From positions 1 to 64,000 of the forward strand of contig DS990603.1 in NCBI GenBank assembly GCA_000155715.1: a DNA stretch of 64,000 nt. The letters are read 5' to 3'. The stretch is from a gamma proteobacterium HTCC5015 (GTDB lineage Bacteria; Pseudomonadota; Gammaproteobacteria; HTCC5015). Made by a program: the position numbers and the translations under genes. Positions 8,952 through 43,496 of this stretch are shown here, piece after piece. The notes beneath the pieces were generated by a model that had not been told where the DNA came from, ran no database searches, and saw only the letters and a program-made list of their open reading frames with translations. Position 1 is the first letter of the stretch. Each line of letters opens with the position of its first letter.

Positions 8952-8954
8952 CTG

Positions 8955-10083: not shown

Positions 10084-10105
10084 GCGCGCTGTCGTCACAG
10101 CGCGC
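10084..10105 (-). terminator. GC-rich hairpin downstream of eno
   Basis: A perfect 9-bp stem (GCGCGCTGT / ACAGCGCGC) with a 4-nt loop lies 5 nt after the eno stop. No T-tract follows on the minus strand, so it may stabilise the eno mRNA end or attenuate rather than terminate. Confidence 0.4.
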
Positions 10106-10110
10106 ACCGA

Positions 10111-11412
<1,302 letters not shown>

Positions 11413-22470: not shown

Positions 22471-23595
22471 TTAATCGCGCTCAAAGACAAAGTCGATATC
22501 GGCGTTATTCAGCGTCAAATTATCCGCCGTATAGGTCGCCGATACCGTCGTTTGGGTAGTGCCGCCGGCAAAAAAGCCCGCATCGCCATTGTCATCGCGA
22601 TCGGCCACCAACTCTAGCGTGCCTTGATCCAGCGTATAACGCCCTACTTCCAGACCCAGCGGGTCCGTCCCCGCTGCTTTAACCGCTACAAATCGCTCGG
22701 ACTCTAGCAGGCTCAGCACCAGCAGATCGTTGGAGCTGTCACTTTGCATGACCCAAGTATCAATGATGGAAGTGCTCGTATTGGCCTGCCTTGTATAACG
22801 ACTTTCAGAGTCGTTTAAAGACAGCTTCAAAGTGCTGGCATCAACATTCAACACCTGTAGCTCACTGCCATTGTTAAAGCCCGCGCTGCCGTTTTGATCG
22901 AGAGTGAGTTGCAAGGTAAAGCGCTGATTGGCCGAGTCGTGCGCATAGTTTCCGAACTCAAATCCCGCATCATTCACCCACAAAAAGCGCGACCCAGCCA
23001 AAAACATCACATGGGTCTTGCCACCATCAGCCGTCCAAGTGCCCCTTAGTCCAAGCTGGCGACTCAAGTGATCTACCACGTCGTCATAGCTGGGCATCAC
23101 ACCGCCCAAATAATTGAACGCCAAATTATCAACTGGGCCGCCTAAATCAATAAACTGCTGGAAAGGCACATTAAAGTTGATGGGCTCGGCAAAGCCCTCT
23201 ATTGCCGTCGTCACTTTAATCCCGTTATCCGGGTTTTGATCTTCATCAATCGCTTGCAGCAAAAAGGCGATGTTAATCACACGCTGATTGCCAATGTCGT
23301 TTGAATTCGCCAGCGTAAACGGTGTAATGACGGCTTGACCCGGCACTGTGGGAAAAGCCGTTTCGCCCACTTTGAAGGTGACATTCTCGCCTTCGAGGTA
23401 ACCAAATTCACCAAACTGATTGGTATAGGCGCGATCAATCGAGTCGGTACTATAGGGCAAGCCCTCCACCACGCTATCTACCAGGACACCCTTTTCCGTG
23501 TATTTGGGAAAATTATTGTCTCGGTTTTCCGAATCGCTGCAGGCGCTCAAGGCACCTGCAGCTACCATAGCCACTACTATTGCTTGTTTTTTCAT
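22471..23595 (-). CDS. lipoprotein, last gene of the secretin/tectonin cluster
   Basis: The 374-residue protein has a lipobox LSAC (Cys19), so it should be lipid-anchored; Asp does not follow Cys, so the outer membrane is likely. Residues ~35-90 (KGVLVDSVVEGLPYSTDS...GEFGYLEGENVTFKVG...VITPF) match a segment I know from secreted or surface gammaproteobacterial lipoproteins. The C-terminal half is beta-rich with two related stretches (LTLDQNGSAGFNNGS; ADRDDNGDAGFFAGG) resembling acidic, possibly calcium-binding loops. It starts 12 nt after the giant gene and is surely in the same transcript. Function unknown. Confidence 0.75.
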   Translation of the reverse strand: MKKQAIVVAMVAAGALSACSDSENRDNNFPKYTEKGVLVDSVVEGLPYSTDSIDRAYTNQFGEFGYLEGENVTFKVGETAFPTVPGQAVITPFTLANSNDIGNQRVINIAFLLQAIDEDQNPDNGIKVTTAIEGFAEPINFNVPFQQFIDLGGPVDNLAFNYLGGVMPSYDDVVDHLSRQLGLRGTWTADGGKTHVMFLAGSRFLWVNDAGFEFGNYAHDSANQRFTLQLTLDQNGSAGFNNGSELQVLNVDASTLKLSLNDSESRYTRQANTSTSIIDTWVMQSDSSNDLLVLSLLESERFVAVKAAGTDPLGLEVGRYTLDQGTLELVADRDDNGDAGFFAGGTTQTTVSATYTADNLTLNNADIDFVFERD

Positions 23596-23607: not shown

Positions 23608-26600
23608 CTATTTATAAATCTTTATCGCCCGCTTGGTATCCATCTTGTCGCAAGCGTTGCCCGCGTTAACGGGGTTGGCGTTGCGCACATAGCCCGAGGG
23701 GCAGCTGACACAGTGACCAAACCAATCCCCCGGCACAGGCAGCAGATGCTGGAATTGGCCCGATGGGCAGCTCGTCTGGGGCTTGCTGTGAATCGTCGCA
23801 GCGCGTCGGCTGGTCGATGACCCTTTACAGTGATTGGGGTCATCAGGACTAATCGTCGGATCGCTGATCGTGCCTCTGGGGCATGAGAAGCAGTTGCCCG
23901 AGGGAATCCAAAGGAACTGACCGCTACCACAGTCGGTGCCAAAAATACCGTAACCCTTGCCGTGGTAAGTCGCTTTCGTGTTGCGGTTCGATGTTTTAAA
24001 ACAAGCTTTGCTGTTTGTTGGCTCGATCACCGCAATATCGCGTTTGTAACCACTGGGGCAACTAATACAGTAACCCGCCTTATCGCCCACCATCTGTTTT
24101 TCTTGGCCCGAGGGGCAGCTCGCGTCAAGCTTTCTATGGCGCGTGGCCTTGGCAAAAACTTGTTTCTCACAAGCATTAGAGGCCGACCAGTGGCGGGTAA
24201 TATTTTTATTGTAGCCATTGGGGCACGACCAGTGCTCCTTGGGCTGAACTCGATAGTGCTTATCGCCATCGTAGATCAGGTTCTGACGATTGAGCACCCA
24301 GGGGTAGCCATCGGGCGTCATCGCGACGCGGGTGGCTTGGCCAGTAATGCGCGTCCAGGTTTGACCTTTATCTTTTGAGAAGTAAATACCCTTACCTTTA
24401 TCGCCCACATCGCCCTTGCTCAGGTGGAAGACGGTGCCATCTTTGGCCACGGCGATATCAGAGGCGATGCCGGGAATAGACGTCCAGCTGCGACCCTTGT
24501 TGGTAGAGCGGTACATGGCTCCCGCATCGTTCATGTGATACGCAATGCCATCGCCCAGTGCCACTTTGGTGGCAGCACCTTGAACACCACTCCAGCCACT
24601 GCCGTTCCAGCGATACATGGCGTGATCCTGGCCGCGAGTTGTCGATTTACTCAAGTGCCAAATTTCGCCATCGGGGCCGGCGGCAATATCACTCGCACTG
24701 CCTGGCATTTTGCTCCAGCCGTTCATGTTGCCTTGGTAGATAGCGCCATTACTCGCTAGATGATAGGCCTTGTCGCCCACACCCGCGGCAATATGAGTGG
24801 CGTGACCGTCTACCTTAACCCAGCTGTTGCTCTGCACATTGCGGTAGAACATATCGCCCGGCACACCGACAATCCACACCACACCCGTGGAGCTAATCGA
24901 AATATCTTTGGCGTGACCCGGGATACGATTCCACGGATGCTCTTTAATTTCGGGTGGTGCATCACCCCAGGGAAAGACCCAGCTTCTGGGTTTATCGCCA
25001 TAACCAATACAGGCTTTAGTGGAATCGAGATCGCCTAAGAACGAGGGCTTGGTGTTATTGGGGCAGCCGTAGCACATGCCATTTTTGGCATTCCATACTT
25101 GGCCTTTTGGACAATCTGTGCCAATTAAACCCGTGCCCTTTTTATATTTGCGCGCCGATGTGTAGAACGGCTTGGGCTGTTTGACCGGATCAATACCATT
25201 GCCCGAAGCGGGTGCACTGACACCATCCCAATAGTGAGCGGCGTGATCTTTACAGTCTTGCAACTCCATCACCGTGCCCTCTTTTTTGTTGGCTCCTTGA
25301 ACCACCACACAGAGGTTGCTGTTCACTCGACTGCGGATACGACCCTTTTCATCTTGCGTCCAAAAAATGCGGGCATCCTTATCGTCACAGCGATACGTCT
25401 TCACCGCAGTGCCCTCGCCGACGCGGTGAGGCTCTCCTGAAAAGACCAGGCAATTGTTGGCATCGCTTTTAATTTTGCCCGACTGCAGAAGGTTCCAACG
25501 TTGATTGCGGCTGCCGAGGCAGGTTTGCAAAGTGGTCTGTTTCGCAGAGCCGTTATCGGTCGCACACAAGCTGTGCAGGCGCGATCTCAGAGCTACCGTC
25601 CCCAGAATCGATTCGTCTTTAGCCTGGTAGCGCTCTTCGAGCTTGGGCCCGAATGTCCACTGCTGAGTGGTTTGCTTGTCACGGCATTCCACCAACTTGG
25701 GCGAACCGTTGGCACGCGACTCCAAACAACTGTGGTCTTTTTTGTTGCGAATGCGTTGCTGTTCGTCCACATACCACTTTTGCTCGGCGTTGTGGTTGCA
25801 CTGCTCCAGTAACATTTGCGTCTGCTCGCCCGTTTTGGCTCCGGCAGGTTGAGCACACAGGGGAATATTTTTGCCTTCATCGACAAAGTTCACTTGCTGC
25901 AGAGGACGCAAGCGACCGGCGCTATCGAGGAACCAACTTTGTGAGCGGCTCTTCACACCTTGCAGACAAGCCTGGCTCTCAATTTTTCCGAGGCGCTTGA
26001 TATTGTCGTCACCGCCGACAACCCCCATACAGAGCTTTGAGGCTTTGTCGTGAATTTGACCGCGTGGCACCGCTGTACCCGAAGCGTGATTCACTGTGAC
26101 TTTTTCACAGGCTTGACTCGACTTCACAGAGAAGACCGTGCGGTTATAGCCTGTGGGACACTTCCAGAACTGGCCGAGGCCCACATCGAAGAAGGCGTTG
26201 GGATCGTTGGGCTTACCCTTGCGCACTAAACTCGCCTTGCTCTCTTTCAAGGAGATGTCTACGGCCACACAGGCTTCGCCAGAGGTGACAGGCGCTACGC
26301 CGCGGATGTAGTTTTTGGGACAGCTGTAGCAATTGCCATTGGGATCCCAGAACTGGCCCGAACCACAATCGGTCCCAAATATGCCATAGCCCTTACCGTG
26401 GTGATTAGCTCGCTTAAAGTTAGCCAGTTTCAATTGAGTACAGGCTTTGGGATGATCGACTGGGTTGGCGTTGCGACCAAATCCATTGGGGCATGACCAG
26501 CACTCGCCTTCATTGCGCGGGTCGTAGAAAGAACCCGAGGGGCAACCCCAAGGCAAGTTCGCGTCCTGTAAATAAGTCGCTTTTTGCTGCTGAACTGTAC

Positions 26601-29600
26601 GCTTAATACAAGCGTTACCCGCGGTTACAGGGGCCGCAGTGCGGCTGTAGCCCGAGGGGCAGCTCCAACACGAGGAGTGGCCGACATCAAAGAACGAACC
26701 TTTGGGGCAATTCCACTCCGCCGCCATCGCATCAATCGTTACTGAGCGGGCATCGTAATAAGTATTTTCGATCAACTCACCTAAGCCGCCCAACGACAGG
26801 CCTTCCGTCGTCAAGCGAATTTCAAATTTTTTGGTGGTATTGGGCACGCGCACCATGTCCCAAGTCCCCTTTGCATTGCGCACATAGACATCACCGGCAA
26901 TGGCGACGCCCATTTTTCCATTGAGCCCCGGGAATCCGGGTAACACGGCACCGGGCGTGGCGAAGAAGAGTTCCACATTGCGGAACTGCAAATCGTTAAT
27001 CGGGATAGGCGAGGCCTCCGCTGCCTGAATAAAGGCCTTGGACGCCGAGCGATCTTTGGCGCCCTGCTGAATGCCTCTCAAGGCATCTTTGACGGGCCCG
27101 TTGGGCAAGGGGTTGATGATGCCATTGGCCAAATCGCCCGTTACCACACCTGCAACGAGGATGTCGTTAATCTCCATAACGTCTTGCAAGCTAAGTCGAT
27201 CGGCCTCGTAGGAGAAGCCGACTTTTTTGGGTGTAGGAATCCCTGTACTCAACACCATGTTGATCACAAAGCCCGTGGCAATGTCGTTGCTGTTGTCGAC
27301 ATTGCCCGCCTGATAGCTCTGCAGCGATTGCAACTGGTCGGCTTGATAAGCCATCGCTTGATCGCCGCGCAAAGGCATTACGCGAGCCAAGTCTGGGTTA
27401 GACGTAATATCAAAGGCCACTTTCACACCGGCGCCAAACTCGACGGCGCCCTCGGTATCTACGCCAACGAGAATGGCACCGTTTTTAAAAGTCATTCCAT
27501 CGAAGCCGAGCGGCGCCTGCCAATCACCCATCATATAGCCCGAAACGCGAACGCCCGCGCCCGTCGCCTGCAAGCTGACATAGGTATCGCCAACGAGTAG
27601 CACTTCGTCGTGGCCGCCGCCACTCTTGGGCAGTTTGAGTACCATATTGCCCGACACACCCAGCTCAAAGGCTTTCTGCAACGTGTTCAAGCGCAAAAAG
27701 AAGCTCGCCGTGCCCTCTTTCATTGAGACCACATTGCCGACGTCATTTTTGCCTTCGGGGAAACTAAAGGTCGGCAGCTGTGCGGCAACGCCGAGCACTA
27801 AATTGCCCTTACTCATACCTTCGAGAGAAACAGCAACCAGTGCCTCTTTGCTCAGTTCAATGCCCAGCGCTTTTTGGGCATCTTTAAAAGTGGTATCGAC
27901 ATTGTCGAAATTCACTTTACCCACCACGGAAACCCCATCTTGTGAAATGGGAATCGAGGCACTCGTGCTGCTGACAATTTTCAGCATTTGGTTTTGTACT
28001 GGCGTAGGCAGGTCGCCAACTTCGACGCCCTGTTCCTTGCTGCTTGGGCGCGTTGACATGCCCAGCGCCACAATCACCTGTGGCATGACAATGGAATTCA
28101 TCACCTTGCGTTCTTGGGTGTTCTTTTTCAGCAAGTTGTCACCGGCAAAGGAGTCCACCACATCGGCGACGGACATTTGATTGGCCGTCATTAACACATA
28201 GGCCTGATTGCCCTCGGTAACGATTGAGACCTTGCCACCCACGGTATTGCTGAAATTGATACCCGCAGTGACATAGAGATCGGGGCGGGACGCGCCACTT
28301 TCAGGTGGCGCAATGCCAAAATACAAATCCGATAGCGACGCTTGGTACAGAGGATCACTCGATTTCAATCCCGCAATTTTGCCCAGTTTTAATTCGCCCG
28401 CGAGGCCAATCGATACATCGTTGATGTCGACTTTTCTACCCTGCGTCGTCGTGTTCAGCATCACGGCACCGCGAAGTTCTTCACCACCAATACTGACCGT
28501 AGCCCCCAAACCAAAGCCCAATTTTCTGGCTGCTTTTTCCTTGCCAACCCCATCGGCCTTGGCTGCTGCGGCCTCGGCTTCGGTCTGCTCTACATCGCCA
28601 CTGCGAGACACTTCAAACGTCGTCGTGCCTTTTAAATCGAGGCCCGTGATTGAAAAGTCGCGTGTACCAATGCCCGAAACGCTTACCCCGCCCGAGCCTG
28701 TTAGTGTCACTTCTTTTTTGCCCGCGACTTCTTTCTCTTCAATCGTGAGCTTGCCGTCAATTTCAAAATCTTTTCCCGCCAACCAAATTTTATTGGTTTG
28801 TGCACCGGACAGCTTTGTACTGCCATTGGCTTTATCAACATCGATAGAAAGTTTGGTGCTCAACAGCTGACTGTAGAGAATTTTCTTGGCGTCGCGCTCG
28901 TTCATCATGGCAAAAGGCGCGGGCGTCACTTCGGGGAAGGCAATACTCAGTGAGTAAGGCAGCGGATCTTTTTTCAGCCCCTGCTCTTTTTCTAAGATTT
29001 TTTGCTCTTCGGTTTTTACTTCTTTTTCTGAGAACAGCTTGTCGATCAAGTCATAGCCCAAATGACCACTGAGATCGAGGGTACCCGCCGTCACCTCGCC
29101 ACCGGCCAAAACAATGCGCTCCCACGTTTTAAGGGGGCCGTCTTTTGGCGTTTTAATTTTGGCAAATACATTAATGCCTTTTTTCAGTACCAATTTGCCT
29201 TTGTCGATGCCCTTCTTCTCTTCATAGCCCTTTACGGCGGACTGCAAATATTTCGACAGAACATTGGGCTTAACCTTGCCGTCGCCCTCACTGGTCACCA
29301 ATACCAAAGACTCGAATTCGGGCTGTCCCAGAATGTCCGCAAGTTGCTTGTACGCTTTGGTTAGCGGTTGTACTTGGTTCGCTGTTTTCGTGTCGACAAC
29401 CAAGGCGGCGTGCCACACCTCTTGCCCCGATGAACGCGAATAAAACGTGGTCGCCGTTAAATCGGTGCCCGGCACCGTAAAGTCGATACCTGTTGAGCCA
29501 CCGACCAAATTGGGCTTGTACAACACTTGGGGAGAGCTGCCCGGCGTTTTTGCCAACGCCAGAATTTGCATCAGCTTGGTCTGTGCTTTCTTTTCGTCGT

Positions 29601-29706
29601 CTGTTGCGGGTTCGTAGGGTTTGCTTGTTACGGCCTGCGCCATCAGCGACACGCTGAATAACGCCAGTAACAAAAGCACCTGCAAGCGGTGAACCATAGC
29701 CTTCAT
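23608..29706 (-). CDS. giant secreted protein: beta-rich N-half, Cys-rich modules, ricin-type lectin, tectonin propeller
   Basis: The 2032-residue protein has a Sec signal peptide (LQVLLLLALFSVSLMAQA). Residues ~30-990 are beta-rich with no recognised domain. From ~995 the order is: four Cys-rich modules (to ~1190), a ricin-B-like region with repeated Q-W motifs (QSWFLD, QKWYVD, QQWTFG, QRWNLL; ~1215-1490), one module (~1522-1558), five to six tectonin-type propeller repeats (GHAKDISIS.. GSASDIAAGPDGEIWHLS; ~1597-1805), and four modules to ~2020. Each module follows a CPxGxxxD...CxxCPxGYxR...AC plan. The ATG at 29706 has GGAG seven bases before it; the frame extends 15 codons upstream without support. 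Binding to sugars on a surface is inferred from the lectin and tectonin parts. Confidence 0.85.
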   Translation of the reverse strand: MKAMVHRLQVLLLLALFSVSLMAQAVTSKPYEPATDDEKKAQTKLMQILALAKTPGSSPQVLYKPNLVGGSTGIDFTVPGTDLTATTFYSRSSGQEVWHAALVVDTKTANQVQPLTKAYKQLADILGQPEFESLVLVTSEGDGKVKPNVLSKYLQSAVKGYEEKKGIDKGKLVLKKGINVFAKIKTPKDGPLKTWERIVLAGGEVTAGTLDLSGHLGYDLIDKLFSEKEVKTEEQKILEKEQGLKKDPLPYSLSIAFPEVTPAPFAMMNERDAKKILYSQLLSTKLSIDVDKANGSTKLSGAQTNKIWLAGKDFEIDGKLTIEEKEVAGKKEVTLTGSGGVSVSGIGTRDFSITGLDLKGTTTFEVSRSGDVEQTEAEAAAAKADGVGKEKAARKLGFGLGATVSIGGEELRGAVMLNTTTQGRKVDINDVSIGLAGELKLGKIAGLKSSDPLYQASLSDLYFGIAPPESGASRPDLYVTAGINFSNTVGGKVSIVTEGNQAYVLMTANQMSVADVVDSFAGDNLLKKNTQERKVMNSIVMPQVIVALGMSTRPSSKEQGVEVGDLPTPVQNQMLKIVSSTSASIPISQDGVSVVGKVNFDNVDTTFKDAQKALGIELSKEALVAVSLEGMSKGNLVLGVAAQLPTFSFPEGKNDVGNVVSMKEGTASFFLRLNTLQKAFELGVSGNMVLKLPKSGGGHDEVLLVGDTYVSLQATGAGVRVSGYMMGDWQAPLGFDGMTFKNGAILVGVDTEGAVEFGAGVKVAFDITSNPDLARVMPLRGDQAMAYQADQLQSLQSYQAGNVDNSNDIATGFVINMVLSTGIPTPKKVGFSYEADRLSLQDVMEINDILVAGVVTGDLANGIINPLPNGPVKDALRGIQQGAKDRSASKAFIQAAEASPIPINDLQFRNVELFFATPGAVLPGFPGLNGKMGVAIAGDVYVRNAKGTWDMVRVPNTTKKFEIRLTTEGLSLGGLGELIENTYYDARSVTIDAMAAEWNCPKGSFFDVGHSSCWSCPSGYSRTAAPVTAGNACIKRTVQQQKATYLQDANLPWGCPSGSFYDPRNEGECWSCPNGFGRNANPVDHPKACTQLKLANFKRANHHGKGYGIFGTDCGSGQFWDPNGNCYSCPKNYIRGVAPVTSGEACVAVDISLKESKASLVRKGKPNDPNAFFDVGLGQFWKCPTGYNRTVFSVKSSQACEKVTVNHASGTAVPRGQIHDKASKLCMGVVGGDDNIKRLGKIESQACLQGVKSRSQSWFLDSAGRLRPLQQVNFVDEGKNIPLCAQPAGAKTGEQTQMLLEQCNHNAEQKWYVDEQQRIRNKKDHSCLESRANGSPKLVECRDKQTTQQWTFGPKLEERYQAKDESILGTVALRSRLHSLCATDNGSAKQTTLQTCLGSRNQRWNLLQSGKIKSDANNCLVFSGEPHRVGEGTAVKTYRCDDKDARIFWTQDEKGRIRSRVNSNLCVVVQGANKKEGTVMELQDCKDHAAHYWDGVSAPASGNGIDPVKQPKPFYTSARKYKKGTGLIGTDCPKGQVWNAKNGMCYGCPNNTKPSFLGDLDSTKACIGYGDKPRSWVFPWGDAPPEIKEHPWNRIPGHAKDISISSTGVVWIVGVPGDMFYRNVQSNSWVKVDGHATHIAAGVGDKAYHLASNGAIYQGNMNGWSKMPGSASDIAAGPDGEIWHLSKSTTRGQDHAMYRWNGSGWSGVQGAATKVALGDGIAYHMNDAGAMYRSTNKGRSWTSIPGIASDIAVAKDGTVFHLSKGDVGDKGKGIYFSKDKGQTWTRITGQATRVAMTPDGYPWVLNRQNLIYDGDKHYRVQPKEHWSCPNGYNKNITRHWSASNACEKQVFAKATRHRKLDASCPSGQEKQMVGDKAGYCISCPSGYKRDIAVIEPTNSKACFKTSNRNTKATYHGKGYGIFGTDCGSGQFLWIPSGNCFSCPRGTISDPTISPDDPNHCKGSSTSRRAATIHSKPQTSCPSGQFQHLLPVPGDWFGHCVSCPSGYVRNANPVNAGNACDKMDTKRAIKIYK

Positions 29707-29769
29707 GTCATAACTCCATATGCCCATTGTTGTAAAAATCAGCCTCGGCAATCACCGCAGCTTAAAAAT

Positions 29770-29775
29770 ATTGTA
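29770..29775 (-). promoter_or_regulatory. -10-like hexamer TACAAT of the giant gene
   Basis: The hexamer TACAAT (minus strand, 5 of 6 matches to the sigma-70 consensus) begins 21 nt after the palindrome at 29797-29814. This places the palindrome centre near -42.5. No good -35 hexamer is present, as expected for an activator-dependent promoter. The distance to the ATG is about 64 nt. Confidence 0.55.
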
Positions 29776-29796
29776 GGTTTTTATAACCACTTGCCT

Positions 29797-29814
29797 ATCG
29801 CCCATACGGGTGAT
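29797..29814. promoter_or_regulatory. operator-like palindrome, copy A (upstream of the giant gene)
   Basis: ATCGCCCATACGGGTGAT is an imperfect dyad with 7-nt arms and a 4-nt centre, in the 128-nt gap upstream of the giant gene. The same arms occur at 35424-35441 and 38068-38085. Confidence 0.7.
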
Positions 29815-29834
29815 TTTCATCGCGCTAACAAGCC

Positions 29835-30575
29835 CTATAGCGCTCTTTTATAACGCCGTTTAACACAAGCCTTGGCGCCGTCCACCGCCTCACTGCTGCG
29901 CTCGTAACCCGACGGGCACGACACGCAGTGATCAAACCAACTCTCGGGGCCGAGTCGATGGTGAAACTGACCTCTCGGACAGCTCTGCGGCGCGCGTTTT
30001 TGGCGCTCTGCCGCCACCGTTTCAATCGCCGCTGTCACGCGTATACAGGCCTTTCTGCTGTCGGCGGGCGCCTCCGTTCGGGCAAACCCCGAGGGACAGG
30101 ACAGACAGTAGCCCTGCCACTTGTAGGGCAGCTCGGGCCAAGCGAGTAAAAATTGGGGATCGGGACAATCCTGACCAAACAATCCCTTGGCGCGCTCGTG
30201 TCTCTCGGCGGCCGCAAATCGGCCACGACCAGCCTCATTGCTGATACAGGCCTCTCGATCCATGGCATCTACGCGATCGTCGCGACGAAATCCCGTGGGA
30301 CAACTCACGCAGTAACCCTTCCAGCGGCCGCGCTCCGCACGGGTTTGCCCCTCGGGACAGTGCTCGGCGGGCCGCCCCTTGCGGGCGCGAGTGTACTGGC
30401 CTTTAAAACACGCCTCGGCAGAATCCGCCGCCGCGCCGTCATATCGCTCGTAACCCATAGGGCAGCGCACATCGTCCTCAGCCAGTATCGGCTGAGACCA
30501 AGCCCCCAAGCCCACCAGCGCCATGCATAAAAGCGCCCATGTTCGCCATTGATGTGTGTATCGCTTTAATGCCAT
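29835..30575 (-). CDS. secreted Cys-rich module protein
   Basis: The 246-residue protein has a signal peptide (WALLCMALVGLGAWSQPILA) and four Cys-rich modules covering the rest: a short CPMGYERY...AC unit, then three full units with GYCVSCPTGFRR, GYCLSCPSGFAR and DHCVSCPSGYER. These are the same module type as in the giant protein next door. The last unit (SCPRGQFHHRLGPESWFDHC) is very close to the giant's final unit (SCPSGQFQHLLPVPGDWFGHC), so one derives from the other by duplication. It starts 9 nt after the tectonin gene stop. Cys spacing suggests disulphide-bonded small domains outside the cytoplasm. Function unknown. Confidence 0.8.
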   Translation of the reverse strand: MALKRYTHQWRTWALLCMALVGLGAWSQPILAEDDVRCPMGYERYDGAAADSAEACFKGQYTRARKGRPAEHCPEGQTRAERGRWKGYCVSCPTGFRRDDRVDAMDREACISNEAGRGRFAAAERHERAKGLFGQDCPDPQFLLAWPELPYKWQGYCLSCPSGFARTEAPADSRKACIRVTAAIETVAAERQKRAPQSCPRGQFHHRLGPESWFDHCVSCPSGYERSSEAVDGAKACVKRRYKRAL

Positions 30576-30584: not shown

Positions 30585-33422
30585 CTACTGCTGTTGATAA
30601 AGCTTGCCGTCTTGGCTCAGCAACCACAGTCTGCCGCGCTCGTCCGCAGCAGCGCTAAACACTTCGCCATAGCTGAATCGAATACTCTCAAAGCGCCGAC
30701 GATTGCTATTAAAGCGCAATAGCTCTCCCTCATTAACGATGTAAAGCTCACCGTTGTTGGCACTGCGTATGACTTCAGAAGCTTGGGGGATCGGTCGAGT
30801 CGCTTGGACAATGCGACCATTTTCTTCACGCATCACGGCATTGTTGCGCTCGAGCCACAACTGGCCTTGGTTATCGACACTCAAATCGCTGAAGACCAAG
30901 CCCGCGTACTCGCGTTCTAGTCGATCTCGACTCTCGTTGTAGACGAACAACTCACCGAGGTTATTCAGTACATAGACGGCATCACCGCCGGCGCTCACTT
31001 TAGGGCTAAACTCTACGGAGGAACCGGTCGCCATACCCAGTACGGGGCGATAGCGCTCACTATTTTCACGCGTTTCCCGCAGCACGCTACCGTCGGTGGT
31101 GACCCACCACATACGCCCCTCTTGGTCGCGACTTAACGCGACCGCATCATCGGGAATATTTCTCAATTCGACAAAGCGCTTACGGCTGGCTTCGTAGCGC
31201 CACACCGTGCCCAGTGTGCCGCCTGCGCTGCCGCCGGTTAAGTCATTGCCCACCTGCACGCAGACGTTGTGGATCTGGTTGCCTGGGTCCAAGCAATCGA
31301 CATTAGCGGCACTGCCACCGGGCTGCCCCGGCATCATGCAGTCGGGGTCTGCAGGGAAAAACAGACAGTAGCCATTGACGAAATCGCCCACGGGATTCGA
31401 TACCACCGTGCTCGCATCAATGGAGGCACAAGTCGAACCATCGAGCTGGTTTTGCGCATTGTTACAAGGCGCGCAGGCCCCAGTGGTATTGCCCCCACAA
31501 TCGGTGGGAGTGGTGCAATTGTTATCGCCCGGATTATCGAGACAAAGCTGGTTTACCCAAGTGGTGGTCGCCGCATTGCTCGATGCACTTGAGGCCCCAC
31601 TCGCGGAGAGTAAAAACAAATCGCCGTAGGCACTGCTGTCTAAGCTCAACCCCGCACCTGCTGAACGGGGTAGATTTTCTTGGGAAAAGCGGAGGTTGCG
31701 ACTAATCACAAAACCGCCCACTCGATTGTCTTGATCCACGGTGCTGCCCTGGATGTTGAGAGACAGCAGTAAATCTTGACCTTCATCGCGTTGGAACAAG
31801 GCACTGTAAGCAATGTTGCCCGAGGCTTCGATCACCCAGGGAAAACCCTCGGGGCCCACCGCTACTTGTTTGACGGGCCGGTGTATATAATCCCAGCGAC
31901 GGCTAGCGTCCTCGCCGTCACCCAGATAGCGATAAAGGCGGTTGTCATCGGACACGGCGAACAACGAGCCCTCAGGGCCAATATCAATCGACTTGGCTCG
32001 CAGTCCCGGCACCAGCTGACAGCGATACTCTGGGCAGTAGCGAATCCGACCATTGCTCTCCAAGACCCACAAGTTCCCCTGTGGGTCGACGGCGACATCT
32101 TGCCCAGAGAGTCCGTGAATGCGTTCGAAACGATTAAAAGTGGGACTAAACTGATAAATCGAGTCCGTCGGCGTTACAATCACCACACCGCCGCCAAAGC
32201 CGATATCAATACGCGTCGCCTCAATACCTTCGATCTTGTCCCAACGCTTGTTGTCGATGCGGTACACGTCACCCGCGGGGTTGATCCCCCACGGCAAACC
32301 AAAGGCATCGACCGCAACCTGCTTTAATACCCCGGGGAAATCCAAAAACTGACGACGCCCATTGCTCCAGCGCTGTAATTGTCCATCTGACGCTGCGCTG
32401 TAGACACTGCCGTCGGAGCCAATCGCCAGCGATTGCGACGCGCTGTCATCAATCTCGATAAAGCGATAGTTTTTGACCTCAGCGGTCGGCTCGGCGCGCT
32501 GTGAAATCACGGTAAAGCCCTCGCTGCGCACCGCTGCCTCGGTGGCCTCATCGCCCAAGTCCGAGACGCCCTCATCCGTGGCCGCAATAACCGAGGCCGA
32601 TTCCACCTTTTCTAGATCTTTGCTGTTTTGCAGTGTGCCCGCCACATAGATGCTGCCATCCTGACTGACAAACCACGGCACACCGTGTTTTCCCACACTC
32701 ACCAGCGAGGCGGGTTTGGGCGCTTCAACACTCAACCATGCCCGCTCACCGCGCAGCAGTAGTTCGCCGCTGCCTCCCACGGCAAACAATTCACCGCCCT
32801 GCCCCGACGCGATCGATTTAACGCTTTGATCATCGCTCTGCCAGCGCTGGCCATCGTAGTAAAACAAGGCCCCGCCTAGGCTGGCCAACCAAACGCGGTT
32901 TTGACTATCGACGGTTAGCGATTTCGCCAATACGGTACCGCTCAAGCCCTCGGGTTGACCGACACCCGCGTCCTCCCAGCGCTCTTCTTTCTCCTGCCAC
33001 TGAACGATCTCGCCTTGAGCCGTCAAAGCGTACACCTGTTCATTGCTGGGCGCGGCGGCGACGTCTAAAGGCGCATCGGAAAACTGCCCTTTCACATCCC
33101 ACCAAATCCCGTTAAAGCGGCGCACCTGCCCTTCGGAATCAATGGCCCAGGGCTTGTTCTGGGCATCGACCGAGATACGGCTGAAGGTGCCGGGCAACAA
33201 GCGCCAACCGCGATCCTGACGCCAGCGGTAGACGCGCTGGTCCTCGCCCACGGCATAAACCACATCGTCCACAGTACTGCTGATGTCGATGGCGTGGCCT
33301 TTAACGGCCTGCCACTGGAAGCCATCCGCCCAACGCTGCAAGGCCTTATCGCTTTTGTGCGGCGCCGCCCCTGCGACAAGGGGCAGGCAAATCAGGCAAA
33401 GAAGAGCGAAAGTTCCACGCAT
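30585..33422 (-). CDS. secreted tectonin-type beta-propeller protein
   Basis: The 945-residue protein has a signal peptide (MRGTFALLCLICLPLVAGA) and many repeats of ~35-45 residues of the form ..(G/A)xDISxxxxxxVYAVGxxxxVYRWxxxxGW. These are tectonin-type propeller blades, in two blocks (about 30-600 and 750-945). Between them (about 610-740) lies an insert with about a dozen Cys and low-complexity NTTGACAPCNNAQN-like stretches. The blades match those in the giant protein. Tectonin proteins in other organisms bind surface sugars or lipopolysaccharide (family knowledge); the target here is unknown. It begins 12 nt after the TPR-secretin stop. Confidence 0.8.
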   Translation of the reverse strand: MRGTFALLCLICLPLVAGAAPHKSDKALQRWADGFQWQAVKGHAIDISSTVDDVVYAVGEDQRVYRWRQDRGWRLLPGTFSRISVDAQNKPWAIDSEGQVRRFNGIWWDVKGQFSDAPLDVAAAPSNEQVYALTAQGEIVQWQEKEERWEDAGVGQPEGLSGTVLAKSLTVDSQNRVWLASLGGALFYYDGQRWQSDDQSVKSIASGQGGELFAVGGSGELLLRGERAWLSVEAPKPASLVSVGKHGVPWFVSQDGSIYVAGTLQNSKDLEKVESASVIAATDEGVSDLGDEATEAAVRSEGFTVISQRAEPTAEVKNYRFIEIDDSASQSLAIGSDGSVYSAASDGQLQRWSNGRRQFLDFPGVLKQVAVDAFGLPWGINPAGDVYRIDNKRWDKIEGIEATRIDIGFGGGVVIVTPTDSIYQFSPTFNRFERIHGLSGQDVAVDPQGNLWVLESNGRIRYCPEYRCQLVPGLRAKSIDIGPEGSLFAVSDDNRLYRYLGDGEDASRRWDYIHRPVKQVAVGPEGFPWVIEASGNIAYSALFQRDEGQDLLLSLNIQGSTVDQDNRVGGFVISRNLRFSQENLPRSAGAGLSLDSSAYGDLFLLSASGASSASSNAATTTWVNQLCLDNPGDNNCTTPTDCGGNTTGACAPCNNAQNQLDGSTCASIDASTVVSNPVGDFVNGYCLFFPADPDCMMPGQPGGSAANVDCLDPGNQIHNVCVQVGNDLTGGSAGGTLGTVWRYEASRKRFVELRNIPDDAVALSRDQEGRMWWVTTDGSVLRETRENSERYRPVLGMATGSSVEFSPKVSAGGDAVYVLNNLGELFVYNESRDRLEREYAGLVFSDLSVDNQGQLWLERNNAVMREENGRIVQATRPIPQASEVIRSANNGELYIVNEGELLRFNSNRRRFESIRFSYGEVFSAAADERGRLWLLSQDGKLYQQQ

Positions 33423-33434: not shown

Positions 33435-35324
33435 CTAGAGCGGCGAACGCTCCAAAACGCGCTTCATACGAGCGGTATGGCTACCGCTGTCGTGCCAAGT
33501 ATTGGCTTTGATGTCACCACTTTGGAAGTTGCGATACAGCTCGCCCCCCTGAAGCTCGCGCATCACATGACGAATATTGGGCAATGGCTGAAACCACGTT
33601 TGGTAGCGATCTTGCAACTGTCCACGGATGGCTTCACTGCGCGCCTCAATGCTCGCTCTGCTCTCTTCCGGATCGGTATACATATAGGAGGCGGGGCGCG
33701 GTGTTAGCAGAATCATGACCGACTTTTTAAAGTCCCGCTGTGTTTTGCGCGAGAAGAACAGGTTAATCAATGGAATGTCGCGCAAAATGGGAACGCCATC
33801 CGAGTCGTTCTCCGTCTCGCGCTCGTTCAAACCACCCAAGATCAGCGTTTGACCATAGTTCATCGCCACATTGGCGTTGACGGTGGTCTTGGTTGTATCG
33901 AGACGGAACTCAAACAACACCGAACTGCTGGGTGTGGTCAAGAACGTCCGCTCGGCTTCGACTTGCAAAATAATCGAGCCGTCGGGCCCGAACTCGGGCG
34001 TCACGGCCAACTTCACCCCAATTTCTTTTTCCACGGAAATCGAGTCGCCCGCACCGCCCGAGACGGCCGCAGCGGAGACTTCTACCCCCGAGAAAAACTC
34101 GGACGTTTGCCCCGCCCGCGCCACCAAAGTGGGTCGAGCCAGAATTTCATTCACACCGTCTTTGGCGTTCAGAATGTTGAGGTTGTAATTGACCGCAGGC
34201 ACCGAAATAAAGTTGGTAATCGTCTCTTGATTCGTGTTCAAGCGCGGATCAAAAATATCGCCGTTGGCCGTATTGACGGGAGGGCGCTGATCCAGAGGAT
34301 CGAGGCGATCTCGTGTACGGATGTTGCCCTCGGTATAGGCCGGCGTGCCATCGAGAGGGTTGCCAAACTGGAATTGAAGCTGGCTCAGCAGGTTAACGCC
34401 TGTGGCACTGGAGACATCTTCTTCCGTGCGCACAATCACCACGTCGACGGCCACCATTTTGTTATCGACAAACTCGTCTTCCTGACTGTAGTAATCGTCG
34501 CTCTCCTCGCCGTAACCGTAGCCATAGTCGTCCTGAGCGCCATAGCCATCACTGTCGACCGAGTCGTAAACCATGCGCCAATCCTCGAGGCGACGCTTTA
34601 GCTTGTCGCTGTATTTGCCATTTTCCGAGGCCGCTAGGTAGCGATCCAGATATTCATGTGCCTCTTCGTCTTCACCCGCTGCGGCTTTGACCACGGTGAG
34701 CATGCGCAGAATCGCCTCGGGTGACACATCGGGCGCACCCACCTCGGCCGACACTTCCCACAGGCGGTTGGCTGCCGCGTGAGCGGCCTCCACATCACCA
34801 GAGTAGTAAGAGGCAAAGGCTAGATAGTAGAGCCCTTCCAAATCGCTATCGTCATGTAAAACATAGGCGCCAAGCTGGGTTTTTGCCTCGGCGTAGCGCT
34901 GCATATCGACATACAAAAGCCCCAGATAAAAACGCGCTTCCCAGTTGCTTCTGTCGGCTCGAATCGCCGTCAAATAACCCTGTTCGGCCAATTCGAAAAA
35001 AGCCGTTTCGCCGTTAAGGGCACGCAAGTGGTAGTTCAAAGCATTCAGCGTTTGCAGCGAGGAGCTGTTAAAGGTTTTGCTTAAGGCCTCGTTAAAAGCA
35101 TCCGTCGCATCCTGTAAATGCCCTTTGCGCATTTCCTTGATGCCATCCTTCACCTCCCCAGAGCTCACTGTTTCAAGTTGCAGGTCGAGACGGTGTGGCG
35201 CTGGATCTTTTCCAAAGCCCGGCATGTGTGAACAGCCTGCTATAAACACGAGTGCCGCCAATACAGAAGCACTCCGAACTCGTCGCATAGGATTTTTAGA
35301 CATGATGAATACCGAGTAGATCAT
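33435..35324 (-). CDS. lipoprotein with TPR repeats and a C-terminal secretin domain
   Basis: The 629-residue protein starts with a lipoprotein signal (VLAALVFIAGC, Cys31). It then has TPR-like helices (about 45-230), an acidic Tyr-rich linker (GYGAQDDYGYGYGEESDDYYSQED, partly quoted) and a secretin domain (about 270-570). The secretin part has VVIVRTEEDVS..., ILARPTLVARAGQ, the NVAMNYGQTLILGGL strand and VPILRDIPLINLFFSRKTQRDFKKSVMILLTPR, partly quoted. It lacks the N0-N3 domains of GspD and is unrelated in layout to the gspD in this window. A multimeric outer-membrane pore is inferred. The start may instead be ATG at 35303 or 35288. It heads the five-gene cluster. Confidence 0.82.
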   Translation of the reverse strand: MIYSVFIMSKNPMRRVRSASVLAALVFIAGCSHMPGFGKDPAPHRLDLQLETVSSGEVKDGIKEMRKGHLQDATDAFNEALSKTFNSSSLQTLNALNYHLRALNGETAFFELAEQGYLTAIRADRSNWEARFYLGLLYVDMQRYAEAKTQLGAYVLHDDSDLEGLYYLAFASYYSGDVEAAHAAANRLWEVSAEVGAPDVSPEAILRMLTVVKAAAGEDEEAHEYLDRYLAASENGKYSDKLKRRLEDWRMVYDSVDSDGYGAQDDYGYGYGEESDDYYSQEDEFVDNKMVAVDVVIVRTEEDVSSATGVNLLSQLQFQFGNPLDGTPAYTEGNIRTRDRLDPLDQRPPVNTANGDIFDPRLNTNQETITNFISVPAVNYNLNILNAKDGVNEILARPTLVARAGQTSEFFSGVEVSAAAVSGGAGDSISVEKEIGVKLAVTPEFGPDGSIILQVEAERTFLTTPSSSVLFEFRLDTTKTTVNANVAMNYGQTLILGGLNERETENDSDGVPILRDIPLINLFFSRKTQRDFKKSVMILLTPRPASYMYTDPEESRASIEARSEAIRGQLQDRYQTWFQPLPNIRHVMRELQGGELYRNFQSGDIKANTWHDSGSHTARMKRVLERSPL

Positions 35325-35441: not shown

Positions 35442-35506
35442 TTTTATTGTTGAGCCCCACGCTAAAACGGGCCAACATGGGCGCCAAGATTTATGGGAAA
35501 ACAACT

Positions 35507-37060
35507 ATGATCCGCTGGCTTGCGCCCCGCTTTCTTCGCTACACACAGGCTGATGACCCCCGCGTGCTGCGCGAGCTCTTCTTAGCTCAATACCGCCAAT
35601 TCACACTCAACACCACGGCCATTCTTTTCTTTCTTATTGCGCTGGCCATTATTTTTCACGATTTTCTGCGCACGCCGTCGGTACTGGCTTGGACCGTCGC
35701 CCATATGCTAACTGGCCCCTATTTCACCTATCTCTTTCGGCGCTTCTCCAACATACCGGAGCACAAGCGCGATTATTTTAAGTGGTATGTTATCTCGCTT
35801 CGCATGGAGTGCTTTTCCGGCTTTATGTGGGGCATCATGCCCCTGGCCTTTTTCCCGATATACGACAACCTAACACTGCCCATCATCATTTTAGGTAGCG
35901 TCATCGTCATTGCCGCCGCCATGGCACTGATGTTTTTGCCCGGCGGCTTTGCCGTCTACGGCCCCCCTGCCATCTTTTTACAAGCGACTACCATCATTTG
36001 GCTGCGCCCCGACCTCTTTATCATGGGCTTACTCGGCTACATGTATTTGGGGATGTCGGTGGTGACCAGCCTCAATGTCAATCGAGCCGTGGCCAGAGCC
36101 TCCCTCCTGCGCTTCAAAAACCAAGACATGCTGGAATCCGTCGAACAAGCCAATGTTGCCAAATCGCGCTTTCTCGCCTCGGCCAGCCACGACTTGCGCC
36201 AGCCTTTGCACGCCCTGTCTCTACTTCTAGGCGTGCTCAGTAACAAGCGGGAGTATCGCGAAGACATTGTTCAGCGTATGCAAAAAAGTGTCTCTAGCTT
36301 AGAAATGCTGTTTAACTCGCTACTCGATATTTCCAAACTCGACGCCAACGCCGTCGATGTCCATATTCAAGATGTGCCGCTCGGCGATGTATTGCATCAA
36401 CTTAAAGAAGATTACAGTGGAGCGGCCGTGCAAAAAGGCCTTGGCTTTCACATTGATATCAATCCACAACACGCGGTTCGATCCGACCCGATTCTTCTTA
36501 AGCGCATACTCTCTAACCTAATCTCCAACGCTTTTCGCTACACCCCAGCCGGTGGGCATATTGATGTAGCGGCTCGACAAGAAGGCGACAAGCTTGTCAT
36601 TGAAGTGCGCGATACAGGCCCCGGCATACCCGCCGACAAACACGAAGAGATTTTTGCCGAATTTGTCCAGCTCGATAATCCCGAGCGCGACCGAAATAAG
36701 GGATTGGGCCTGGGGCTCGCCATCGTGCGGCGTCTATGCCATCTACTGGCGCACGATGTTGATCTACATTCCACCGCCGATCCACTGAGCGGCCACACCG
36801 GCACAACCTTTTGTATTAGAGCACCGCTGGGCGCCGCGCCCAGCGCCAGCAGAGTGGCCATGCGTGATGCGCCCCCCGCTTCCAACTCAGAACACAGCGA
36901 CGAGACACAGGAAGGCATCGTCCTCGTGGTAGACGATGAAAAGATGTGCGCGACGCCATGCAGGATTTGCTCAATAGCTGGGGTTACACCGCACTCGCCG
37001 CGGACAGCGGCCAAAGCGCGCTCCAAGTCATCGACGAATGCGGTATCGCCCCGGATGTGA
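35507..37060 (+). CDS. membrane sensor histidine kinase (hybrid type, frameshifted before the receiver)
   Basis: The N-terminus has about six hydrophobic helices (about 20-190), then a HisKA dimerisation domain with the phospho-acceptor His in ASHDLRQPLHA (about 225). A complete ATPase domain follows: N-box ILSNLISNAFRYTP, G1 VRDTGPGIPADK, G2 GLGLGLAIVRR. After VLVVDDEKM the frame runs into about 43 unrelated residues and stops, while a complete receiver continues in the +1 frame. I take ATG 35507 as the start, with GGGAAAA upstream; ATG 35477 and TTG 35447 are in frame. It is divergent from the secretin operon and convergent with a response regulator, so it is the likely sensor of this system. 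Confidence 0.85.
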   Translation: MIRWLAPRFLRYTQADDPRVLRELFLAQYRQFTLNTTAILFFLIALAIIFHDFLRTPSVLAWTVAHMLTGPYFTYLFRRFSNIPEHKRDYFKWYVISLRMECFSGFMWGIMPLAFFPIYDNLTLPIIILGSVIVIAAAMALMFLPGGFAVYGPPAIFLQATTIIWLRPDLFIMGLLGYMYLGMSVVTSLNVNRAVARASLLRFKNQDMLESVEQANVAKSRFLASASHDLRQPLHALSLLLGVLSNKREYREDIVQRMQKSVSSLEMLFNSLLDISKLDANAVDVHIQDVPLGDVLHQLKEDYSGAAVQKGLGFHIDINPQHAVRSDPILLKRILSNLISNAFRYTPAGGHIDVAARQEGDKLVIEVRDTGPGIPADKHEEIFAEFVQLDNPERDRNKGLGLGLAIVRRLCHLLAHDVDLHSTADPLSGHTGTTFCIRAPLGAAPSASRVAMRDAPPASNSEHSDETQEGIVLVVDDEKMCATPCRICSIAGVTPHSPRTAAKARSKSSTNAVSPRM

Positions 37061-37327: not shown

Positions 37328-37954
37328 CTATATCACGCCCATCAAGCGCGCCTGCTGGGCGCACTCCACGCGACTGTTTACCTTGAGCACAGAAAACAGC
37401 TTCGCGATATGCGTTTTCACCGTGTGCTCAGAAATATTTAACACCGCGGCAATTTCCTTATTCGTCGAGCCCTTGGCCATCTCTGCCAACACCTGCATCT
37501 GGCGCCCACTCAACTCACTAAACGCCGCGCGATCGACATCGTCGCTCTCCCAAGACGGATGCTGCGCAGTGGCCTCTAGTGCGGGGTGGTATAACTCCCC
37601 CGCCAGCACGCGCCGCAGTATGGCCAGCATCTCAGGCGCGGGCGTCGATTTGGGAATAAAACCACGCACTCCCGCCTCCATACAGGCGTTGACGTCCGCT
37701 TGGCTCTCCGTGGCCGAAATCACCACCACCGGCGTTTCCGGCACGCGATGTACCACGCCCGTCAAACTGCGCATGCCCTTCATGCCCGGCATGCGCAAAT
37801 CCATCACCAATAGATCAAATGGCTCCACCAATTGAGATTTGAGCTCTTCCAAGCTTCCCGCCGTGCTCACTCGAACATTCTCGACCAAATCTGCCATCAG
37901 CATCGTTATGCCATCTAAAAAGAGCTGATGATCGTCTGCTAAAAGAACCCGCAT
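37328..37954 (-). CDS. NarL/LuxR-type response regulator
   Basis: The 208-residue protein has a receiver domain (LLADDHQLFLDGI, phospho-Asp52 in VMDLRMPG, VISATES, FIPKSTP) and a C-terminal GerE helix-turn-helix (LSGRQMQVLAEMAKGSTNKEIAAVLNISEHTVKTHI, partly quoted; about 140-200). The open frame extends 37 codons upstream, but MRVLLADDHQ is the family start. A palindrome shared with the secretin operon lies 114 nt upstream, suggesting autoregulation. It is convergent with the hybrid kinase. Regulation of the secretin/tectonin cluster is inferred from the shared site. Confidence 0.92.
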   Translation of the reverse strand: MRVLLADDHQLFLDGITMLMADLVENVRVSTAGSLEELKSQLVEPFDLLVMDLRMPGMKGMRSLTGVVHRVPETPVVVISATESQADVNACMEAGVRGFIPKSTPAPEMLAILRRVLAGELYHPALEATAQHPSWESDDVDRAAFSELSGRQMQVLAEMAKGSTNKEIAAVLNISEHTVKTHIAKLFSVLKVNSRVECAQQARLMGVI

Positions 37955-38067
37955 CCCACTAACCGTTGATTGTGATTTTGGCTCATTAAACCGCGAATAC
38001 GCGGCAAAAAAAAGATTCTGCCCCCAGCAATAACGCGTTTTAAGACGCCCATCGCACAACCACAAAA

Positions 38068-40993: not shown

Positions 40994-41998
40994 ATGAGCA
41001 CGGATACAGCAGACAGCAACACCAACGACAACACCGCTTTGCAGTCTTCTCTGCAGCAACTTCAAGAACACATTGGGCAGCACATTATCGGCCAGCACCG
41101 CTTGGTCGAGCGCTTGTTGATTGCCTTGCTCGCCGACGGCCACTTACTCGTCGAAGGCGCGCCGGGGCTGGCAAAAACCCGCGCGATCAAGGTTCTCAGC
41201 GAGGGCATCGAAGGCGACTTTCAGCGTATCCAATTTACGCCCGATCTACTGCCCGGCGACATTACCGGCACCGACATCTACCGCCCGCAAGACGGCAGCT
41301 TTGCCTTTCAATCGGGACCTCTTTTCCACAACTTAGTCCTCGCCGATGAGATCAACCGCGCCCCTGCCAAAGTACAGTCGGCACTGCTCGAAGCCATGGC
41401 CGAGGGGCAGATTACCGTCGGCCGCCACACCTACCCGCTCCCCGAGTTGTTCTTGGTGATGGCGACGCAAAACCCCATTGAGCAGGAGGGCACCTACCCC
41501 CTGCCCGAGGCACAGCTCGATCGCTTTTTACTGCACGTTAAAGTCGACTACCCCAGCGCCGAGGAAGAACTCAAAATTTTGCGCCTAACCCGCGGTGAAG
41601 CCGTCGACAATGCGGCGCAGGCAGCGCCCGCCATCACACTCAAGCAAGCCGACCTGTTCGCCGCCCGCCAAGCCGCACTGGGGCTGCACATGAGCGAGAG
41701 CGTCGAGCGCTATTTGGTCGAACTGATTGCCGCCACTCGCCAGCCCGAGCGCTACGGCGACGATCTCGCCGGCTGGATCGACTACGGCGCCAGTCCCCGC
41801 GCCACACTGGCACTGGATCGCTGCGCGCGTGCGCTGGCTTGGCTACAGGGGCGCGACTACGTTTCCCCCGAGGATGTACAGGCCATCGCCCACGACGCGC
41901 TGCGCCACCGACTCGTGCTGAGTTTTGAAGCCGAGGCCGAGGGCATTGATGCCGATACGGTCATCACCGCACTGCTCGACCGCGTTCCCGTGGCCTAA
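40994..41998 (+). CDS. MoxR-family AAA+ ATPase
   Basis: The 334-residue protein has the MoxR signatures IIGQHRLVERLLIALLADGHLLVEGAPGLAKT (Walker A, partly quoted), RIQFTPDLLPGDITGTDIY, LADEINRAPAKVQSALLEAM (Walker B) and MATQNPIEQEGTYPLPEAQLDRF. It is the first gene of a MoxR-DUF58-DUF4381-VWA-VWA-BatD operon. Such ATPases act as chaperones that load or remodel the VWA partners, often under stress (family knowledge). Client unknown. Confidence 0.93.
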   Translation: MSTDTADSNTNDNTALQSSLQQLQEHIGQHIIGQHRLVERLLIALLADGHLLVEGAPGLAKTRAIKVLSEGIEGDFQRIQFTPDLLPGDITGTDIYRPQDGSFAFQSGPLFHNLVLADEINRAPAKVQSALLEAMAEGQITVGRHTYPLPELFLVMATQNPIEQEGTYPLPEAQLDRFLLHVKVDYPSAEEELKILRLTRGEAVDNAAQAAPAITLKQADLFAARQAALGLHMSESVERYLVELIAATRQPERYGDDLAGWIDYGASPRATLALDRCARALAWLQGRDYVSPEDVQAIAHDALRHRLVLSFEAEAEGIDADTVITALLDRVPVA

Positions 41999-42024
41999 AA
42001 CGCACATCGCTGTAGATTCACGCT

Positions 42025-42951: not shown

Positions 42952-43496
42952 CGCCTTCCAACACCGCGCCATCGACCGCGCAACAGGATTTGCCCCTGCG
43001 CGATATTCACCTGCCCGACCCCGTCTCTTGGTGGCCACCCAGCCCGTGGCTGTGGCTGCTCCTCATCGGGGCGGCCCTGCTCGTGTTTGTCACGCTGCGC
43101 TGGGTTATTCCCTGGCTGTGGCGACGCTACCATCAACGCGCCATCAATTATCGTCCCGGCGCGCGCCGTGAATTCGCCAGCCTTGAACGCCAGTGGCAAG
43201 ACGGCGAGCTCGATCGCGCCCAATTGGCAGCGGCACTCAATCAGCTGCTGCGCCGTTTAATCGCCACCGAGCGGCCCCACGCCAGCATTGGCGACACCGG
43301 AGAAGCCTGGCTACAGCAACTGGCCGCTCACTTTGAGCTCGACGCCCAACCCAGCGGGGCCACGGCTTATGCACTTACCGAGGCGGCCTATCGTGCCGAT
43401 CCCGACTTTAATGCCGACGCCGCGCTCGCCGATATCAAACAGTGGCTAAGCGGTCGCTATAAACACTCACGGGGAGGCCGCCATGCTGGAGTTTGA
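42948..43496 (+). CDS. DUF4381 small membrane protein
   Basis: The 182-residue protein has LRDIHLPDPVSWWPPSPWLWLL leading into one transmembrane helix (about 26-52), then a basic helical domain with LAAALNQLLRRLIATE and YRADPDFNADAALADIKQWL. This is the DUF4381 pattern found in Bat operons. It overlaps the gene before by 4 nt and the gene after by 14 nt. Role unknown. Confidence 0.87.
   Translation: MTPSNTAPSTAQQDLPLRDIHLPDPVSWWPPSPWLWLLLIGAALLVFVTLRWVIPWLWRRYHQRAINYRPGARREFASLERQWQDGELDRAQLAAALNQLLRRLIATERPHASIGDTGEAWLQQLAAHFELDAQPSGATAYALTEAAYRADPDFNADAALADIKQWLSGRYKHSRGGRHAGV

What the first reader, a model, noticed from the sequence alone, without database searches (positions are those of the whole stretch)
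23608..30575. A shared Cys-rich module (CPxG...CxxCPxGYxR...AC) in two neighbouring proteins
Nine copies in the giant and four in the 246-residue protein follow one plan of about 35-45 residues ending in an N/KAC. The last module of each protein is nearly the same, so a duplication linked them. In the giant the modules separate the lectin and propeller blocks, like spacers. I do not recognise this as a named domain.
Basis: seen in the sequence. Interest (0 to 1): 0.62.

Follow-up and report, generated by a model that had tools for sequence, protein, structure and literature searches.

The report
Disulphide-module lectins beside secretin operon
Two neighbouring exported bacterial proteins share a small cysteine-stapled repeat that is a distant bacterial cousin of a module known from animal receptors, and they sit in a gene cluster, found in many unrelated bacteria, that pairs such proteins with an outer-membrane channel and a propeller-type lectin protein; this cluster seems not to have been described.

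Summary
A profile built only from other genomes finds nine modules in the 2047-aa protein and four in the 246-aa one (E 3e-92 and 1e-27; nothing in shuffles). Three of the 13 are half or damaged copies. The small protein is colinear with the giant's last four modules, so more than the last module was duplicated.

The module is not an unnamed domain. It is a divergent bacterial branch of Pfam Ephrin_rec_like (PF07699, TNFR/GCC2-GCC3-like). The window copies fall below Pfam's cut-off, but 34 of 45 related arrays match (best 5e-10) and one relative passes it. The plan is two "CPxGxF...C" halves; the pairing C1-C2/C3-C4 is inferred.

The new part is the context. The module occurs in about 45 species of several phyla. 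In proteobacteria these proteins usually sit beside, or share a genome with, a TPR-secretin lipoprotein and a tectonin-propeller protein. The window has this locus, with the module genes between propeller and lipoprotein genes.

Most likely the modules are rigid disulphide spacers in secreted multivalent glycan-binding proteins. Export through the local secretin is plausible but not shown; a type II secretion operon in the same window is the main rival route.

The parts
23608..29751 (-). Giant secreted protein (2047 aa as read from TTG; likely start ATG at 29706): signal peptide, unique Cys-free N-terminal region, modules g1-g4, ricin-B, g5, tectonin, g6-g9
26755..29706 (-). N-terminal 984 residues of the giant, no cysteine, no relative found
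26602..26745 (-). module g1 (giant 1003-1050)
   Evidence: E 4e-17
26434..26592 (-). module g2 (1054-1106)
   Evidence: E 4e-20
26263..26421 (-). module g3 (1111-1163)
   Evidence: E 9e-15
26101..26247 (-). module g4 (1169-1217), C1 and C2 both lost
25240..25833 (-). ricin-B lectin region (1307-1504)
25006..25167 (-). module g5 (1529-1582)
   Evidence: E 3e-6
24289..24924 (-). tectonin propeller domain (about 1610-1821)
24163..24267 (-). half-module g6 (1829-1863), C3-C4 only
23995..24159 (-). module g7 (1865-1919)
   Evidence: E 5e-9
23824..23985 (-). module g8 (1923-1976)
   Evidence: E 3e-6
23644..23811 (-). module g9 (1981-2036)
   Evidence: E 8e-12
29835..30575 (-). 246-aa secreted protein, signal peptide plus four modules, colinear with g6-g9
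30402..30470 (-). half-module s1 (36-58)
   Evidence: E 0.014
30243..30398 (-). module s2 (60-111)
   Evidence: E 5e-6
30039..30221 (-). module s3 (119-179)
   Evidence: E 2e-9
29859..30023 (-). module s4 (185-239)
   Evidence: E 4e-12
30585..33422 (-). tectonin-propeller protein (945 aa, signal peptide), core partner of the locus
33435..35324 (-). lipoprotein with TPR repeats and a secretin domain (629 aa), no N0/N1 secretin domains detected
22471..23595 (-). lipoprotein (374 aa), 38% identical to the lipoprotein that follows secretin-tectonin in a Thalassolituus MAG
35447..37060 (+). sensor histidine kinase, divergent from the operon; a kinase also flanks the Thalassolituus locus
37328..38065 (-). 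LuxR-type response regulator, counterpart in the Thalassolituus locus

Best explanation
The repeat is a disulphide-stapled, receptor-type module (a divergent bacterial Ephrin_rec_like/TNFR A1-like unit). Each full copy is two tandem halves, C1PxGxF...C2 and C3PxGYxR...AC4, with inferred pairing C1-C2 and C3-C4. Tandem arrays form stiff spacer rods in exported glycan-binding proteins. In the giant they hold a ricin-B lectin and a tectonin propeller apart so that the lectins can bind surface glycans together; the 246-aa protein is a duplicated stand-alone copy of the giant's C-terminal rod. Both belong to a conserved locus built on a TPR-secretin lipoprotein and a tectonin-propeller protein. Steps supported here: module identity, duplication, signal peptides (read from sequence) and conserved gene neighbourhood. 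Inferred: disulphide pairing, spacer role, glycan binding, and passage through or anchoring at the locus's own secretin.
For: Leave-window-out profile, E 3e-92 and 1e-27. 34 of 45 arrays match PF07699, best 5.2e-10; one relative scores 36.5 bits over a cut-off of 23.1 across the whole profile. 214 of 235 modules keep all four Cys; the three clear losses, all in the window, drop C1 and C2 together and keep C3-C4. AlphaFold of the g1-g4 array, pLDDT 87.5, short beta-strand pairs in the half-modules; the best though non-significant fold matches include several EGF, TNFR2, DR5, HVEM, R-spondin and EphA2 ectodomains. DsbA-family protein present in the genome. Module proteins with lectin or tectonin ends in several relatives. 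Cys protein, TPR-secretin and tectonin gene together in 23 of 32 loci whose Cys protein has the helical domain; for six of the other nine the pair lies elsewhere in the same genome. The window secretin is 69% identical to its Thalassolituus counterpart, with the same secretin-tectonin-lipoprotein order.
Against: The window's modules do not reach Pfam's cut-off, and a six-frame PF07699 search misses this genome. No significant fold match. The secretin family also occurs without Cys modules, for example followed by pentapeptide-repeat proteins, so it is not exclusive to them. Module proteins in Streptomyces, Nostoc and others lack the secretin. The window's giant lacks the helical domain typical of the linked family. 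The scan was seeded with triad-bearing sequences, which biases the linkage count.
Confidence: 0.6

Rival explanations
1. The giant and the 246-aa protein are ordinary type II secretion substrates: Sec export, disulphide folding in the periplasm, then export by the T2SS encoded 20 kb away; the TPR-secretin does something else.
For: gspD, E, F, G, I, K and L equivalogs over their cut-offs at window 55015-64000. Folded, disulphide-bonded, lectin-bearing proteins are typical T2SS cargo (general knowledge).
Against: The conserved neighbour of these genes across classes is the TPR-secretin and tectonin pair. The T2SS neighbourhood was seen in this one genome only and not tested elsewhere.
Confidence: 0.35
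2. The modules are themselves binding domains (for glycans or proteins, like TNFR or EGF modules that contact ligands) rather than passive spacers.
For: The 246-aa protein consists of modules alone, so a pure spacer would have nothing to separate. The stretch between C1 and C2 varies in length, with long insertions in the fifth module of some relatives.
Against: Conserved positions look structural (Cys, Pro, Gly, aromatic, Arg); no conserved surface patch was tested. In the giant they lie between recognised lectin domains.
Confidence: 0.3
3. The module is an unrelated cysteine-rich fold that resembles Ephrin_rec_like only through the shared CPxG..CxxCPxGY motif.
For: Window copies are below the Pfam cut-off; no significant Foldseek match; short Cys-rich motifs can match by composition.
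Against: 34 of 45 arrays hit this family, more than any other of 24,736 models, with one full-profile match at E 4e-9; 14 control genomes give no match.
Confidence: 0.15

Closest known systems
Pfam PF07699 Ephrin_rec_like (GCC2_GCC3, TNFR-like modules of Eph receptors and others)
   Same: CPxGxF/Y...C, CxxCPxGxY...C plan, tandem repeats in extracellular multi-domain proteins; profile matches in relatives up to 5e-10
   Different: C1-C2 spacing is variable, the second half ends in an AC after a V-containing stretch, copies are separated by linkers; window copies score below the cut-off
Ilumatobacter coccineum YM304_37510, reported as Ephrin_rec_like plus HYR (PMC6993872)
   Same: A bacterial Ephrin_rec_like protein; one relative here (L027) also carries HYR domains
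   Different: That paper reads it as a transfer by HGT; here the module is spread over several bacterial phyla and often sits in a conserved bacterial locus
Tectonin-2 of Laccaria bicolor (PDB 5fsb) and fish-egg lectin
   Same: Tectonin propeller domain, E 8e-16 to the giant; Lb-Tec2 binds O-methylated glycans (PMC5238581)
   Different: Fungal and animal lectins; here fused to ricin-B and Cys modules
Secretins GspD/PilQ and lipoprotein secretins
   Same: PF00263 secretin core at 1.2e-28, lipobox at the N-terminus
   Different: TPR repeats in place of detectable N0/N1 domains; far below the GspD (77.6 of 351 bits) and PilQ (95 of 284) cut-offs

Membership tests
PF07699 Ephrin_rec_like | whole-protein score at or above the gathering cut-off (23.1 bits), window proteins | tested here: not met
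   246-aa protein 20.3 bits; giant g1-g4 array 16.6 bits; six-frame search of the genome, no match
PF07699 Ephrin_rec_like | same score, for members of the same module family elsewhere | tested here: met
   L062 module 36.5 bits over positions 2-48 of 48; 34 of 45 arrays at E<=0.01
PF07699 Ephrin_rec_like | disulphide pairing of TNFR A1-like halves (1-2, 3-4) | tested here: inconclusive
PF07699 Ephrin_rec_like | fold like EphA2/TNFR ectodomain modules | tested here: inconclusive
   confident model; several top Foldseek rows are such ectodomains but none has E<1e-3
Type II secretin GspD | TIGR02517 score over 351 bits for the 33435-35324 protein | tested here: not met
   77.6 bits; the window's true GspD is at 62852-64000
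Secretin superfamily | PF00263 secretin domain | tested here: met
   100.3 bits, cut-off 27.5
Tectonin | PF19193 over 30 bits | tested here: met
   69.4 bits in the giant, 103.9 in the 945-aa protein

The most novel reading that the evidence does not exclude
The locus is an undescribed, dedicated outer-membrane export or display system: a TPR-secretin lipoprotein lacking the usual inner-membrane docking domains, with a tectonin propeller partner, moving or anchoring Cys-module lectin proteins on the cell surface; a family of bacterial receptor-type modules is native to it rather than borrowed from animals.
Probability: 0.3. Interest if true: 0.75.

Novelty: new variant of a known kind. Interest (0 to 1): 0.52.

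Why it matters
It replaces 'unknown domain' by a testable identity, and shows that receptor-type Ephrin_rec_like modules, said to have arisen in ancient eukaryotes with rare bacterial copies by transfer (PMC6993872), form a broad bacterial family. It also uncovers a conserved gene set (TPR-secretin, tectonin propeller, Cys-module lectin) for which I found no description and which may be a new route for exporting or displaying glycan-binding proteins.

Tried and rejected
Phage and plasmid collections: no relative of the 246-aa protein. IMG/VR viral contigs: none, so no sign of a phage origin. PHROGs: nothing for the module proteins. PDB sequence searches with the small protein and the array profile: nothing meaningful. 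VIA-align second look at the module model: only one row, Z 2.3. N-terminal 984 aa of the giant: no relative in the fetched loci or in 302 genomes of the class. A two-module alignment was too variable for the degenerate-pattern scans. Helical domain of relatives: model only pLDDT 62.6, no significant fold; the list holds some alpha-pore-forming proteins at E near 1 and above, which proves nothing. Zinc-ribbon reading rejected: only one CxxC per module, and the proteins carry export signals (inference). Exclusive one-to-one secretin link rejected: the secretin family also occurs with pentapeptide-repeat neighbours. Literature searches found no paper on a tectonin-secretin locus.

Full report
Observation. 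The two ORFs are intact and both start with what reads as a signal peptide. I built a module profile from 222 copies taken only from other genomes and searched the window's ORFs of 60 aa or more together with 100 shuffled copies. It reports just two proteins: the giant with nine modules (E 3.1e-92) and the 246-aa protein with four (E 1.1e-27). Two copies (g6, s1) are halves, and g4 lacks its first two cysteines. Every cysteine of the giant lies in a module or in the ricin-B region. The small protein aligns end to end with g6-g9: 78 of 214 columns identical, score 310, against a maximum of 60 in 200 shuffles. Module-by-module scores agree for s2-g7 and s4-g9, while s3 is closest to g3 and g9 and s1 is too short to tell.

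Identity of the module. Pfam finds no module hit in the giant at E up to 1 and a sub-threshold Ephrin_rec_like hit in the small protein (20.3 bits, cut-off 23.1). In relatives the signal rises: a Gammaproteobacteria MAG protein (L062) matches the whole PF07699 profile at 36.5 bits, and 34 of 45 arrays match that family at E<=0.01, best 5.2e-10, more than any other model. NCD3G and ELAPOR1 TNFR-like models come next. A six-frame genome search with PF07699 finds nothing in this genome and nothing in 14 control genomes, so the copies here are too divergent for the curated model. The AlphaFold model of g1-g4 from 45 sequences is confident (pLDDT 87.5) and shows short strand pairs in the half-modules. 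Foldseek gives no match under E 1e-3, but several of its top rows are EGF, R-spondin, TNFR2, DR5, HVEM, EphA2 and ELAPOR1 ectodomains; this agrees in kind but is not proof. Of 235 modules, 214 keep all four cysteines. The other 21 are mostly alignments cut by insertions or ends; the three clear losses, all in the window, remove C1 and C2 together and keep C3-C4. That is a small natural hint for pairing C1-C2 and C3-C4, as in the A1 units of TNF receptors (my own knowledge).

Distribution. Module proteins occur in about 45 species: Thalassospira, Magnetovibrio, Sneathiella, Thalassolituus, Curvibacter, Thiobacillus, Sulfuritalea, Elusimicrobia, Gemmatimonadaceae, Streptomyces, Nostoc and others. 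None was found in phages, plasmids or viral contigs. They are rare: 5 of 398 sampled genomes of the phylum. In the commonest type, four or five modules follow the signal peptide, then comes a helical domain of about 380 residues unknown to Pfam, with a hydrophobic segment in most members tested, and in several a tectonin or ricin-B end. The window's giant carries modules, ricin-B and tectonin but has its own N-terminal region, for which no relative was found.

Gene neighbourhood. In 23 of 32 loci with the helical-domain type, the module gene lies within 10 kb of, and usually directly beside, a lipoprotein with TPR repeats and a secretin domain and a tectonin-propeller protein. In alphaproteobacteria, and in a gammaproteobacterial MAG and a Curvibacter MAG, the order is AraC-type regulator, Cys protein, secretin, tectonin (AraC by Pfam in two Thalassospira loci). 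Six of the nine remaining loci lie in genomes (G748, G749, G751) that hold the secretin and tectonin pair elsewhere. One of the other three (G037) is a broken locus with frame-split remnants. In the window the order is secretin, tectonin, 246-aa, giant, 374-aa lipoprotein, with gaps of 12, 9, 128 (from the likely ATG) and 12 bases. A Thalassolituus MAG (L109) has secretin (69% identical), tectonin (37%) and lipoprotein (38%) in the same order without the Cys genes, beside a kinase and regulator that resemble those of the window, so the Cys genes of the window look inserted into, or lost there from, an otherwise conserved operon. The secretin family is wider than this: 12 of 398 genomes of the phylum have it, and in three loci checked by Pfam it is followed by a pentapeptide-repeat protein in place of the propeller. 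It lacks detectable N0/N1 domains at E up to 1 and is far from GspD and PilQ cut-offs.

How it most likely works. Shown or strongly supported: export signals, module identity, duplication, conserved locus. Inferred: the modules fold as disulphide rods after Sec export (a DsbA-family protein is present); they space the ricin-B and tectonin lectins for multivalent binding, possibly to O-methylated glycans as for Lb-Tec2 (PMC5238581); the TPR-secretin carries or anchors them at the outer membrane. The main rival for export is the T2SS encoded at 53766-64000.

Novelty. The module is a new bacterial variant of a known receptor-type domain. One bacterial Ephrin_rec_like protein, with HYR, is reported and read as horizontal transfer (PMC6993872); the breadth seen here makes that reading worth re-testing. 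I found no description of the secretin-tectonin-Cys-module locus in the held library, which holds open-licence papers only. Caveats: the genome scan was seeded with triad-bearing sequences, many loci are close Thalassospira relatives, and MAG contigs may be misassigned.

Noticed in passing
window 53766-64000: Type II secretion operon on the minus strand (gspD partial, E, F, G, I, K, L confirmed by NCBIfam), 20 kb from the finding.
   Followed up: yes
window 30585-33422, residues 627-721: The tectonin-propeller protein has a Cys-rich insertion (10 Cys) also present in the Thalassolituus copy but apparently not in the two Thalassospira copies counted (3-4 Cys in all).
   Followed up: no
L091, L092, L110 (secretin loci): The same TPR-secretin family is directly followed by pentapeptide-repeat proteins in other genomes, so its partner slot seems to take different repeat proteins.
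   Followed up: partly
L028 (G037) 5278-10266: A decayed copy of the locus: Cys-module/helical-domain gene split across frames, a ricin-B fragment and a secretin fragment.
   Followed up: partly
L027 112-4482: Cys modules fused to HYR domains, the same pairing reported for Ilumatobacter YM304_37510.
   Followed up: no
window 26755-29706: 984-residue Cys-free N-terminal region of the giant with no relative found in the loci and genomes searched.
   Followed up: partly
L025, L026, L049 and others, after the modules: A conserved helical domain of about 380 aa unknown to Pfam, with a hydrophobic segment in most members tested, followed in several by lectin or tectonin ends; it could insert into membranes.
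   Followed up: partly
window 40994-48160: MoxR-DUF58-VWA-BatD cluster.
   Followed up: no
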